This document shows positions 15,204 through 17,413 of a stretch of DNA of 64,000 nucleotides, piece by piece. The stretch spans positions 1,739,001 to 1,803,000 of the forward strand of contig NZ_CM001023.1 of NCBI RefSeq assembly GCF_000166275.1. The letters run 5' to 3'. A program made the translations under genes and the position numbers. This stretch comes from Algoriphagus machipongonensis (GTDB lineage: Bacteria > Bacteroidota > Bacteroidia > Cytophagales > Cyclobacteriaceae). Numbering within the stretch: the stretch's first letter is position 1; every line of letters begins with the position of its first letter. Under the pieces are notes generated by a model that saw only the letters and a list, made by a program, of their open reading frames with translations, searched no databases and was not told where the DNA came from.

Positions 15204-15278
15204 CGGGGTGTGGCGCAGTCCGGTTAGCGTACACGTCTGGGGGGCGTGGGGTCGTGGGTTCAAATCCCGCCACCCCGA
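15204..15278 (+). tRNA. tRNA-Pro, anticodon GGG
   Basis: A complete cloverleaf can be drawn: acceptor CGGGGTG/CACCCCG, D stem GCGC/GCGT, anticodon stem CACGT/GCGTG with the 7-nt loop CTGGGGG (anticodon GGG at 15239-15241, G at position 37 as usual for tRNA-Pro), T stem GTGGG/CCCGC with loop TTCAAAT, and discriminator A. CCA is not encoded. It is the only intact copy; eight 3' fragments follow it. Confidence 0.93.
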
Positions 15279-15289
15279 CTAAACATATT

Positions 15290-15316
15290 AGCAGTTCTTC
15301 GGAACTGCTTTTTTTA
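15290..15316 (+). terminator. UUCG-tetraloop intrinsic terminator of tRNA-Pro
   Basis: AGCAGTTC-TTCG-GAACTGCT followed by a T run. The same terminator is repeated after each of the eight downstream tRNA fragments. Confidence 0.92.
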
Positions 15317-15360
15317 TAGAAATAGCAGAAGAATTGTGGACAGTTAACAAATCATAAGCT
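15317..15360 (+). repeat. Short-module spacer with GGACAG/CTGTCC hairpin, copy 1
   Basis: Spacer between the tRNA terminator and fragment 1. GGACAG and CTGTCC (the latter overlapping the start of the next fragment) can pair around an AT-rich loop. Further copies start near 15877, 16437, 16581, 16725 and 17287. In the last, the loop has three changes but the arms are intact. Confidence 0.75.
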
Positions 15361-15422
15361 GTCCGGTTAGCATATCCTGACTGAGGTCAGGAGGGTCGTG
15401 GGTTCAAATCCCGCCACCCCGA
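15361..15422 (+). pseudogene. tRNA-Pro 3' fragment 1 (before nuclease gene 1)
   Basis: Matches the tRNA from its D-loop GTCC to the discriminator A. It lacks the 5' acceptor strand and 5' D stem, and its anticodon arm is replaced by TCCTGAC-TGAG-GTCAGGA. Carries the GCA variant (GGTTAGCATATCC). Followed by a UUCG terminator at 15434-15460. Confidence 0.88.
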
Positions 15423-15538
15423 CTAAACATATTAGCAGTTCTTCGGAACTGCTTTTTTTTAGTTTTTTTAGAAGAAATCAGATAAGCTTTTAAATCGCAA
15501 GTGATCTGGTTCGCTTCAATTTAAAGCAATTATTTTTT

Positions 15539-15778
15539 ATGGAGTTCACCGTGTACATTCTCTTTTCTGATAAACTAGGTAAGTATTATGTTGGGCAAAC
15601 CAAAGACTTAAAAAGTCGGCTTTCAAGGCATAACCAAGGTCGAGAAAGGTTTACAAGAACTGGCTGCCCTTGGAAGCTTATTCATTCGATTTATTGTAGT
15701 AGCAGGAGTGAAGCGATGATTTTGGAAAAAAAGATCAAGAACCTCGGTGCAAAGAGATATTTGGCAAGTCTAGAGTAG
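15539..15778 (+). CDS. GIY-YIG nuclease family protein, copy 1
   Basis: A 79-residue single-domain GIY-YIG nuclease (UvrC N-terminal/YhbQ fold), predicted to cut DNA with one metal ion. Visible motifs: VYIL with Tyr6 (GIY), YYVGQT with Tyr17 (YIG), Arg27 in SRLSRHN, and Glu63 in AMILEKKIK. There is no accessory DNA-binding domain. The leader has a stem (AATCAGAT pairing with ATCTGGTT) but no obvious promoter or Shine-Dalgarno. The final G of its TAG stop is the first base of tRNA fragment 2, so gene and fragment are fused end to end. Identical in protein sequence to copy 2. Confidence 0.9.
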   Translation: MEFTVYILFSDKLGKYYVGQTKDLKSRLSRHNQGRERFTRTGCPWKLIHSIYCSSRSEAMILEKKIKNLGAKRYLASLE

Positions 15779-15839
15779 TCCGGTTAGCGTATCCTGACTG
15801 AGGTCAGGAGGGTCGTGGGTTCAAATCCCGCCACCCCGA
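15778..15839 (+). pseudogene. tRNA-Pro 3' fragment 2 (after nuclease gene 1)
   Basis: 62 nt with the GCG variant (GGTTAGCGTATCC) and the same palindromic replacement of the anticodon arm. Its first base is the last base of the nuclease stop codon. Followed by a UUCG terminator (15851-15876) and a short-module spacer. Confidence 0.88.
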
Positions 15840-15921
15840 CTAAACATATTAGCAGTTCTTCGGAACTGCTTTTTTTATAGAAATAGCAGAAGAATTGTGG
15901 ACAGTTAACAAATCATAAGCT

Positions 15922-15983
15922 GTCCGGTTAGCATATCCTGACTGAGGTCAGGAGGGTCGTGGGTTCAAATCCCGCCACCCCGA
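15922..15983 (+). pseudogene. tRNA-Pro 3' fragment 3 (before nuclease gene 2)
   Basis: 62 nt with the GCA variant, matching fragment 1. Followed by a UUCG terminator (15995-16021) and the leader of nuclease gene 2. Confidence 0.88.
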
Positions 15984-16099
15984 CTAAACATATTAGCAGT
16001 TCTTCGGAACTGCTTTTTTTTAGTTTTTTTAGAAGAAATCAGATAAGCTTTTAAATCGCAAGTGATCTGGTTCGCTTCAATTTAAAGCAATTATTTTTT

Positions 16100-16339
16100 A
16101 TGGAGTTCACCGTGTACATTCTCTTTTCTGATAAACTAGGTAAGTATTATGTTGGGCAAACCAAAGACTTAAAAAGTCGGCTTTCAAGGCATAACCAAGG
16201 TCGAGAAAGGTTTACAAGAACTGGCTGCCCTTGGAAGCTTATTCATTCGATTTATTGTAGTAGCAGGAGTGAAGCGATGATTTTGGAAAAAAAGATCAAG
16301 AACCTCGGTGCAAAGAGATATTTGGCAAGTCTAGAGTAG
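16100..16339 (+). CDS. GIY-YIG nuclease family protein, copy 2
   Basis: The 79-residue product is identical to copy 1, and the gene lies exactly 561 bp downstream of it, so this is a recent duplication of a nuclease-plus-short-module block. All catalytic residues (Tyr6, Tyr17, Arg27, Glu63) are kept. The leader is also unchanged. Its stop codon again shares a base with the following tRNA fragment. I infer the same activity as copy 1; three near-identical genes in 1.7 kb suggest the gene travels with the repeat. Confidence 0.9.
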   Translation: MEFTVYILFSDKLGKYYVGQTKDLKSRLSRHNQGRERFTRTGCPWKLIHSIYCSSRSEAMILEKKIKNLGAKRYLASLE

Positions 16340-16400
16340 TCCGGTTAGCGTATCCTGACTGAGGTCAGGAGGGTCGTGGGTTCAAATCCCGCCACCCCGA
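16339..16400 (+). pseudogene. tRNA-Pro 3' fragment 4 (after nuclease gene 2)
   Basis: 62 nt with the GCG variant. Followed by a UUCG terminator (16412-16437) and a spacer with one base change (GAATTAGCAG). Confidence 0.88.
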
Positions 16401-16482
16401 CTAAACATATTAGCAGTTCTTCGGAACTGCTTTTTTTATAGAATTAGCAGAAGAATTGTGGACAGTTAACAAATCATAAGCT

Positions 16483-16544
16483 GTCCGGTTAGCGTATCCT
16501 GACTGAGGTCAGGAGGGTCGTGGGTTCAAATCCCGCCACCCCGA
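16483..16544 (+). pseudogene. tRNA-Pro 3' fragment 5
   Basis: 62 nt with the GCG variant, in a run of three consecutive 144-bp short modules. Followed by a UUCG terminator (16556-16581). Confidence 0.88.
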
Positions 16545-16626
16545 CTAAACATATTAGCAGTTCTTCGGAACTGCTTTTTTTATAGAATTAGCAGAAGAAT
16601 TGTGGACAGTTAACAAATCATAAGCT

Positions 16627-16688
16627 GTCCGGTTAGCGTATCCTGACTGAGGTCAGGAGGGTCGTGGGTTCAAATCCCGCCACCCCGA
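16627..16688 (+). pseudogene. tRNA-Pro 3' fragment 6
   Basis: 62 nt with the GCG variant, 144 bp after fragment 5. Followed by a UUCG terminator (16700-16725). Confidence 0.88.
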
Positions 16689-16770
16689 CTAAACATATTA
16701 GCAGTTCTTCGGAACTGCTTTTTTTATAGAAATAGCAGAAGAATTGTGGACAGTTAACAAATCATAAGCT

Positions 16771-16832
16771 GTCCGGTTAGCATATCCTGACTGAGGTCAG
16801 GAGGGTCGTGGGTTCAAATCCCGCCACCCCGA
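16771..16832 (+). pseudogene. tRNA-Pro 3' fragment 7 (before nuclease gene 3)
   Basis: 62 nt with the GCA variant, as for the other two fragments that precede a nuclease gene. Followed by a UUCG terminator (16844-16868) with a shorter T run. Confidence 0.88.
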
Positions 16833-16947
16833 CTAAACATATTAGCAGTTCTTCGGAACTGCTTTTTTAGTATTTTTTAGAAGAAATCAGATAAGCTTTT
16901 AAATCGGTAGTGATCTGGTTCGCTTCAATTTAAAGCAATTATTTTTT

Positions 16948-17187
16948 ATGGAGTTCACCGTGTACATTCTCTTTTCTGATAAACTAGGTAAGTATTATGT
17001 TGGGCAAACCAGAGACTTAAATAGTCGGCTTTCAAGGCATAACCAAGGTCGAGAAAGGTTTACAAGAACTGGTTGCCCTTGGAAGCTTATTCATTCGATT
17101 TATTGTAATAGCAGGAGTGAAGCGATGATTTTGGAAAAAAAGATCAAGAACCTCGGTGCAAAGAGATATTTGGTAAGTCTAGAGTAG
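16948..17187 (+). CDS. GIY-YIG nuclease family protein, copy 3 (diverged)
   Basis: A 79-residue GIY-YIG protein that differs from copies 1 and 2 at four positions (K22R, K25N, S54N, A76V), with one further silent change. The catalytic residues Tyr6, Tyr17, Arg27 and Glu63 are unchanged. Its leader also differs in the loop region but keeps the paired segments. Four of the five base changes alter the protein, so constraint on the non-catalytic surface appears weak or the copies are young. The stop codon is fused to fragment 8 in the same way as the other copies. Confidence 0.9.
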   Translation: MEFTVYILFSDKLGKYYVGQTRDLNSRLSRHNQGRERFTRTGCPWKLIHSIYCNSRSEAMILEKKIKNLGAKRYLVSLE

Positions 17188-17248
17188 TCCGGTTTGCGTA
17201 TCCTGACTGAGGTCAGGAGGGTCGTGGGTTCAAATCCCGCCACCCCGA
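17187..17248 (+). pseudogene. tRNA-Pro 3' fragment 8 (last in array)
   Basis: 62 nt. The D-loop part reads GGTTTGCG instead of GGTTAGCG, otherwise like the GCG variant. Followed by a UUCG terminator (17260-17286) and the terminal spacer, whose GTCC at 17331-17334 joins unique sequence. Confidence 0.88.
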
Positions 17249-17413
17249 CTAAACATATTAGCAGTTCTTCGGAACTGCTTTTTTTATAGAAATAGCAGAA
17301 GAATTGTGGACAGTAAACTAATTATAAGCTGTCCCAGCAATGCAGGATTTTCAAACCTGACCCTAGATCATGGGACTTCTTATCCGTATAACTTTAAGAT
17401 TTTAATCCATATT

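What the first reader, a model, noticed from the sequence alone, without database searches (positions are those of the whole stretch)
15204..17334. Tandem array of truncated tRNA-Pro copies interleaved with three GIY-YIG nuclease genes
An intact tRNA-Pro(GGG) is followed by eight 62-nt copies of its D-loop-to-3'-end part, each with the same UUCG terminator, and three near-identical 79-aa GIY-YIG nucleases. None of the copies can fold as a tRNA, because the 5' acceptor strand is missing and nothing in the spacers replaces it. The nuclease genes are fused to the fragments (the last base of each TAG stop is the first base of a fragment). I infer a mobile, self-amplifying element that targets the tRNA-Pro gene while keeping an intact copy at the left end. 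GIY-YIG genes near tRNAs are, from memory, common in Bacteroidota, but I know of no described mechanism for such an array.
Basis: partly seen in the sequence, partly recalled or inferred. Interest (0 to 1): 0.92.

Follow-up and report, generated by a model that had tools for sequence, protein, structure and literature searches.

The report
Nuclease elements living beside tRNA genes
Bacteria related to this one carry small nuclease genes beside particular tRNA genes, usually with a broken copy of the same tRNA, interrupted by a short DNA hairpin, on the gene's other side; this looks like an undescribed family of tRNA-specific mobile elements.

Summary
In detail: one intact tRNA-Pro(GGG), eight 63-nt partial copies and three near-identical 79-aa GIY-YIG genes. 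It is no lone oddity: the same genome has 20 such gene copies in 10 clusters, each beside a tRNA gene. On a tree of 89 proteins, clades follow the tRNA they sit beside (20 label changes; shuffled mean 62.4). A scan with the Leu-linked protein, blind to tRNAs, kept 80 of 248 loci: 70 lie within 400 bp of a same-strand tRNA, 68 of these tRNA-Leu, in Bacteroidota, Ignavibacteria and candidate-phyla bins. The gene's far side usually holds a piece of the host's own tRNA; 74 of 90 hairpin inserts lie in or at a loop (null 43.5). Best reading: tRNA-gene-specific, homing-like elements keeping one intact tRNA and a hairpin-disabled remnant, with arrays from tandem duplication. Cutting and movement are untested. 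Carriers' intact tRNAs are often identical to non-carriers', which counts against simple homing. The hairpin's role is open.

The parts
15204..15279 (+). intact tRNA-Pro(GGG)
   Evidence: ARAGORN; only Pro(GGG) gene among the 37 tRNAs found in this genome
15290..15316 (+). UUCG intrinsic terminator of the tRNA, repeated after every fragment
   Evidence: sequence
15361..15423 (+). fragment 1 (tRNA nt 15 to 3' end, anticodon arm replaced by hairpin), preceded by ORF-less spacer
15539..15778 (+). GIY-YIG gene copy 1 (79 aa)
15778..15840 (+). fragment 2, starts on last base of ORF 1 stop
15922..15984 (+). fragment 3, after ORF-less spacer
16100..16339 (+). GIY-YIG gene copy 2 (identical protein to copy 1)
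16339..16401 (+). fragment 4, starts on last base of ORF 2 stop
16483..16545 (+). fragment 5
16627..16689 (+). fragment 6
16771..16833 (+). fragment 7
16948..17187 (+). GIY-YIG gene copy 3 (95% identical)
17187..17249 (+). fragment 8, starts on last base of ORF 3 stop
15375..15392 (+). hairpin TCCTGAC-TGAG-GTCAGGA replacing the anticodon arm (first of eight; others start at 15792, 15936, 16353, 16497, 16641, 16785, 17201)
   Evidence: folds

Best explanation
The array is one member of a large family of tRNA-gene-resident, homing-like elements. SHOWN by sequence: a small GIY-YIG nuclease gene sits on the tRNA's strand, between one intact tRNA and, usually, a partial copy of the same tRNA on its far side. 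Two mirror forms exist: tRNA-ORF-3' fragment and 5' fragment-ORF-tRNA. The partial copy matches the host's own tRNA and usually carries a roughly 20-nt hairpin, most often in or at the edge of the D, anticodon or T loop. Nuclease sequence tracks tRNA identity across species, and for Leu across phyla. The gene is present at a given tRNA in some species and absent or broken in others. Three species pairs show the low dN/dS of purifying selection. INFERRED: the nuclease recognises its tRNA gene (as DNA sequence or extruded structure) and starts recombination that places or copies the ORF there, leaving one intact gene because the tRNA is needed. The hairpin disables the second copy, by destroying the cut site, by blocking recombinational loss, or by stopping tRNA-processing enzymes from treating it as a tRNA. 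Ordinary or nuclease-stimulated recombination between the direct repeats gives tandem arrays and keeps fragments like the tRNA.
For: Ten clusters with 20 copies in this genome, each cluster beside a tRNA. In loci held from G000-G053, 83 of 105 small GIY-YIG rows have a same-strand tRNA in the locus and in none is the nearest tRNA on the other strand; the first gene is typically 45-71 bp downstream (part of these loci had been fetched around tRNAs, so this is not an unbiased sample). Protein tree versus label: 20 changes, least 14, shuffled 62.4, 0 of 200 as low. Scans blind to tRNAs: 70 of 80 loci within 400 bp of a same-strand tRNA, 68 of 70 Leu, 60 of 70 with a partial copy; window protein, 21 of 24 other genomes at a tRNA, 9 of them tRNA-Pro. 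Inserts of at least 10 nt in 57 of 58 far-side fragments; 74 of 90 hairpin inserts in or at a loop versus 43.5 expected, maximum 58 in 2000 simulations. Fragment versus own tRNA identity 0.972, versus other same-anticodon tRNAs mean 0.695, best 0.914. Empty Leu(TAA) site in G018. dN/dS 0.07-0.17 in the three between-species pairs with finite dS. Ten columns invariant in 21 proteins. Closest solved relatives: UPF0213 and structure-specific SLX1. Weak profile matches to group I intron endonuclease, below cut-off, and to a phage homing endonuclease family for one of three proteins.
Against: No cleavage, homing or transcription data. Intact tRNAs of carriers are identical to non-carriers' for Thr, Asp and Val, so the donor has no changed target inside those tRNAs. 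The Pro T-stem difference between 3 carriers and 16 genomes without a neighbouring gene may be clade history, and a Pro-type gene in G053 follows an unaltered tRNA end. No foreign tRNA half is seen. Fragments also occur without a nuclease gene. No relative was found in phages for two query proteins or in viral contigs, so the vehicle of any transfer is unknown. Vertical descent of old paralogues could also give tRNA-matched clades. Not each label is one clade (Met needs 3 changes, Ala, Lys, Pro, Leu-CAA, Asn and Arg-CCT 2 each).
Confidence: 0.55

Rival explanations
1. RNA-level insulation. The elements persist mainly by vertical descent; ORF and fragment share the tRNA's transcript. The hairpins exist because a plain half-tRNA there would pair with the intact tRNA or attract RNase P, RNase Z or modifying enzymes and disturb maturation.
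For: Hairpins sit mostly in or at D, T and anticodon loops, places those enzymes read (enzyme contacts recalled); ORFs lie directly after the tRNA terminator with little room for a promoter; in mirror forms the tRNA lies downstream of the fragment and ORF; ORF-less fragments carry hairpins too.
Against: Does not explain why the fragment is kept, or the match between nuclease and tRNA identity. It complements the homing reading more than it excludes it.
Confidence: 0.2
2. RNA-directed nuclease with decoys, like a type III toxin-antitoxin: the GIY-YIG protein acts on tRNA and the hairpin-capped fragments are sponge RNAs.
For: Repeats, terminator and nuclease ORF in that order in the window; a fragment folds better than shuffles (z -4.1 with terminator, -2.2 without); nuclease matches tRNA identity.
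Against: SLX1, one of the closest relatives with a solved structure, acts on DNA (its role recalled); many loci have the fragment downstream of the ORF, or a 5' fragment; ORF-less fragments occur.
Confidence: 0.08
3. Plain decay: tRNA genes duplicate in tandem, spare copies collect palindromic repeats and nuclease genes at random because they are dispensable.
For: Fragments without ORFs; the same hairpin types occur outside tRNA fragments, e.g. 7 of 12 sites of one pattern.
Against: 70 of 80 same-strand association with 68 of 70 Leu, loop placement, conserved hairpin and fragment in several species while ORF synonymous sites are diverged.
Confidence: 0.1

Closest known systems
Phage T4/T6 SegB, free-standing GIY-YIG homing endonuclease in tRNA clusters (PMC13096335: abstract, passages and sections 10 and 12 read; PMC2988022: passages read)
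   Same: GIY-YIG nuclease gene beside tRNA genes; associated with tandem amplification of a tRNA segment
   Different: Chromosomal; tblastn of two of these proteins found nothing in the phage collection; only about 80-100 aa; nuclease clades keep to a tRNA identity, whereas the paper saw no preferred isotype for SegB; flanked by a hairpin-bearing partial tRNA
Fungal mitochondrial mobile ORFs (mORFs) that duplicate a gene's 3' end (Allomyces, Glomus; PMC3630166, passages read)
   Same: Gene - nuclease ORF - duplicated terminal part of the gene; one case has a GIY-YIG ORF
   Different: Target is tRNA; there the inserted end is foreign and the displaced one native, here both match the host; the mirror 5' form and hairpins are not described in the passages read
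Mitochondrial double-hairpin elements (search listing only; loop insertion recalled)
   Same: Short palindromes inserted in RNA-gene loops (recalled)
   Different: Here they sit in tRNA remnants flanking a nuclease gene, in bacteria
UPF0213/YhbQ-like and SLX1 GIY-YIG nucleases
   Same: Closest solved relatives by profile
   Different: Not known to be tied to tRNA genes (recalled)

Membership tests
Free-standing homing endonuclease element | Nuclease domain with conserved catalytic residues | tested here: met
   PF01541; Y6, Y17, R27, H31, E63 invariant in 21 proteins; catalytic roles recalled
Free-standing homing endonuclease element | Alleles without the gene exist at the same site | tested here: met
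   Leu(TAA): G018 empty, G000 and G009 filled, both flanks shared; one locus only
Free-standing homing endonuclease element | Carrier allele protected by a changed target | tested here: not met
   Intact tRNAs identical in carriers and non-carriers for Thr, Asp, Val; a target that includes flanks is not excluded
Free-standing homing endonuclease element | Cuts its target and is preferentially inherited | not testable with these tools
   needs biochemistry
Free-standing homing endonuclease element | Horizontal spread | tested here: inconclusive
   Phyla mix on the Leu-type tree (19 changes, least 11, shuffled mean 20.7, as low in 6 of 200) but the protein is short and support low
Fungal mORF-type element | Terminal part of target gene duplicated across the ORF | tested here: met
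   58 far-side fragments, both ends represented
Fungal mORF-type element | One copy of the duplicated part is foreign | tested here: not met
   Fragment and intact tRNA share the host's own variable arm in the Leu(TAA) loci resolved; identity 0.972 over 62 Leu loci
tRNA-targeting integrative element | Integrase gene between the tRNA repeats | tested here: not met
   Only the 79-aa GIY-YIG ORFs are listed between the repeats in the window at 50 aa or more
Type III toxin-antitoxin | Upstream RNA repeats, terminator, then toxin | tested here: inconclusive
   Order fits the window, not the 5' fragment-ORF-tRNA loci; toxicity untested
REP/RAYT palindromes | Y1 transposase mobilising the palindromes | not tested
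   No search for the transposase was made

The most novel reading that the evidence does not exclude
A new class of element whose niche is the tRNA gene itself: families of tiny nucleases, each specialised for one tRNA identity across phyla, that move with a hairpin-armed half-tRNA as a functional part, in which the hairpin at loop edges both marks the cut site and keeps the tRNA maturation pathway undisturbed.
Probability: 0.35. Interest if true: 0.93.

Novelty: new variant of a known kind. Interest (0 to 1): 0.85.

Why it matters
If right, tRNA genes in Bacteroidota, Ignavibacteria and candidate-phyla bacteria host a widespread family of specialised nucleases. It would give a natural set of protein-to-tRNA-gene specificities readable from sequence, help explain small GIY-YIG genes and tRNA pseudogenes in these genomes, and offer a chromosomal counterpart to phage SegB amplification. 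The hairpin-capped half-tRNAs are directly testable by RNA-seq and cleavage assays.

Tried and rejected
T-stem recoding as nuclease immunity: 3 Pro carriers (G000, G001, G018) differ from the 16 genomes without a neighbouring gene printed, but intact tRNAs of Thr, Asp and Val carriers do not differ and G053 has a Pro-type gene after an unaltered tRNA end. Dropped as a general rule; clade history was not tested. The output was cut, so some tRNA groups were not seen there. Foreign tRNA half as in mORFs: not seen. Phage origin: no match for two proteins in phages; 38 pattern matches but no relative in viral contigs. Terminator copied with the fragment: true in some loci (Thr G000 and G017 1.00) and not in others; over 90 comparisons mean within 0.68, mean best other 0.73, within better in 41, so no general claim. 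Hairpins as genome-wide repeats: one pattern has 12 sites (control 0), 5 in tRNA fragments, one after tRNA-Glu, the rest elsewhere, including terminators and a 23S-5S spacer; the second pattern has 46 sites against 5 for the control. Over all 169 hairpin inserts 119 are at loops versus 77.6 expected, weaker than in the named loci alone; inserts over 45 nt, with N, or without a stem were left out (169 kept of 201) and some may be alignment noise. Literature: no paper on chromosomal tRNA-linked GIY-YIG arrays among the rows listed (long listings were capped), and none holding either of two hairpin strings; held library only.
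Full report
Observation. The window is part of a 4,786,724-base single-contig genome. One genome of the same genus code, G010, has a contig whose length and position match Algoriphagus mannitolivorans, so the genus is most likely Algoriphagus; that is an inference. The array reads tRNA-Pro, fragment 1, ORF 1, fragments 2 and 3, ORF 2, fragments 4 to 7, ORF 3, fragment 8. 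Stretches 561 bases apart match without a difference over 300 bases, so part of the array duplicated recently. Each fragment keeps tRNA nt 15 to the 3' end, but nt 29-45 are replaced by a hairpin with a 7-bp stem. With its terminator the first fragment folds better than all 200 shuffles (z -4.1); without it z is -2.2 and 5 of 200 fold as well.

Same genome. A protein search gives 20 matches, one with an internal stop and one truncated. They fall in 10 clusters, each beside a tRNA gene: Pro, Thr, Arg, two Met, Asn, Asp, two Leu, Val. A PF01541 search gives 23: these 20, two in long frames of 611 and 460 aa, and one among dispersed repeats with no tRNA in its locus. The sites printed bear a piece of the same tRNA on the far side of the gene, with hairpins in place of or inside its loops. 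Fragments without a nuclease gene also exist, for example at Lys, Ala, Arg(ACG), Ser and initiator Met.

Genus and order level. In 264 loci from G000-G053 I found 105 small GIY-YIG rows. 83 have a same-strand tRNA in the locus, 22 have none, and in no row is the nearest tRNA on the opposite strand. This sample is biased: part of the loci were fetched around tRNAs, and the list of nuclease hits was capped. For the tree, short or weak pieces and identical proteins were dropped, leaving 89 proteins, 20 of them without a tRNA in the locus. Fifteen of these 20 form a separate clade. Of the other five, two lie near contig ends and group with Met and Lys proteins, one (G053) groups with Pro proteins beside tRNA-Pro pieces, and two (G025) have no tRNA. 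I merged labels of hairpin-bearing Ala and Val copies that ARAGORN misnames. The 15 labels, 'no tRNA' among them, need 20 changes (least possible 14; shuffled mean 62.4; 0 of 200 as low); without that label 15. Met needs 3 changes and several others 2. The proteins are short and many forks are unresolved.

Wide level. A scan of named genomes with an alignment of five Leu-linked proteins kept the best 80 of 248 confirmed loci. 70 of 80 have a same-strand tRNA within 400 bp, 0 on the opposite strand; 3 more have one at 432-516 bp and 7 have none. 68 of the 70 are tRNA-Leu with five different anticodons, the other two tRNA-Ser, also a long-variable-arm tRNA. Organisms of the 80 include Bacteroidota, Ignavibacteria, Balneola, a Chlorobiota bin and several candidate-phyla bins; bins can be contaminated. 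60 of the 70 show a partial copy. One search resolved 58 far-side fragments in 56 of the 80 loci (fragments identical to ones already held were dropped): 30 of the form 5' fragment-ORF-tRNA (28 of 30 start at tRNA nt 1) and 28 of the form tRNA-ORF-3' fragment; 57 of 58 carry an insert of 10 nt or more. The commonest insert, CCTGCCTGCCGGCAGGCAGG, occurs in 18 distinct contexts. Among 90 hairpin inserts in the named loci 74 lie in or at the edge of a D, anticodon or T loop (null mean 43.5, maximum 58 in 2000 simulations). For all loci together the excess is smaller, 119 of 169 versus 77.6.

The window protein searched over 395 genomes of the class hit 25, its own included, at E 1e-16 or better. 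I examined 28 loci that cover all 24 others: 21 of 24 have the gene within 400 bp of a same-strand tRNA; 9 are tRNA-Pro, the others His, Asp, Met, Ser, Arg, Ala, Gly; in 19 of the 21 BLAST finds a piece of that tRNA elsewhere in the locus (E 0.02 or better, some short). G266, another genus of the family, has a four-copy array at tRNA-Pro(TGG).

Evolution. Over 62 Leu loci the fragment matches its own tRNA (mean identity 0.972) better than other same-anticodon tRNAs (best 0.914, mean 0.695); own is at least as good as the best other in 57 and strictly better in 35. At Leu(TAA) the variable arm differs between species and the fragment follows its own tRNA with few differences, while the hairpin keeps its stems and varies in its loop (the fragment was resolved in 8 of the 10 filled loci given, two of which repeat a genome already among them). 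This implies gene conversion, constraint, or repeated insertion. Of nine protein pairs, dN/dS is 0.07-0.17 in three between-species pairs (dS 1.94 in one), 1.05 between two array copies with almost no changes, and dS is saturated in five. G018 lacks the element at Leu(TAA) with both flanks preserved. Some copies look broken, e.g. G018 Leu(CAA) and G040 Thr. Architecture changes often on the Leu-type tree (12 changes, shuffled 20), and phyla are mixed, but resolution is low.

Mechanism. Association, matching of nuclease to tRNA, mirror architecture, hairpin placement and presence/absence are shown. Cutting, movement and the hairpin's function are inferred. SegB is a precedent for a GIY-YIG nuclease that sits by tRNAs and drives tandem amplification (PMC13096335, abstract, passages and sections 10 and 12 read). 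Fungal mORFs are one for gene-ORF-duplicated gene end (PMC3630166, passages read). The point against simple homing is that the intact tRNA in carriers is often unchanged. A nuclease that reads flanking or structured DNA, low expression, or inefficient cutting of the donor (reported for such enzymes in PMC13096335) would reconcile this.

Verdict. A real and widespread association, undescribed in the rows returned by the searches made. I rate it a new variant of homing-type elements, with an open case for something more distinct.

Noticed in passing
L055 (15 kb left of the window; G000:C1:1723964): A GIY-YIG gene of a separate clade sits among dispersed repeats of the type GTCATTGCGAGG...GGAACGACGAAGCAATCT; the 15 proteins of this clade on the tree have no tRNA in their loci.
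   Followed up: partly
L052 and L053: Tandem 5' halves of tRNA-Ser(GCT) (two, plus one without its start) and of initiator Met (two), with a D-loop hairpin, upstream of the intact gene, without a nuclease gene.
   Followed up: partly
L155 (G009): Around tRNA genes, eight roughly 112-nt repeats of tRNA-Lys 5' parts with an anticodon hairpin, plus a Lys-type nuclease gene and several 3' fragments.
   Followed up: partly
hairpin inserts, e.g. L300, L305, L307: The 20-nt insert CCTGTCTACCGACAGGTAGA can form either of two overlapping 6-bp hairpins, read by eye.
   Followed up: no
L267: A hairpin of the same type lies between the 23S rRNA end and the 5S rRNA (genes recognised by eye).
   Followed up: no
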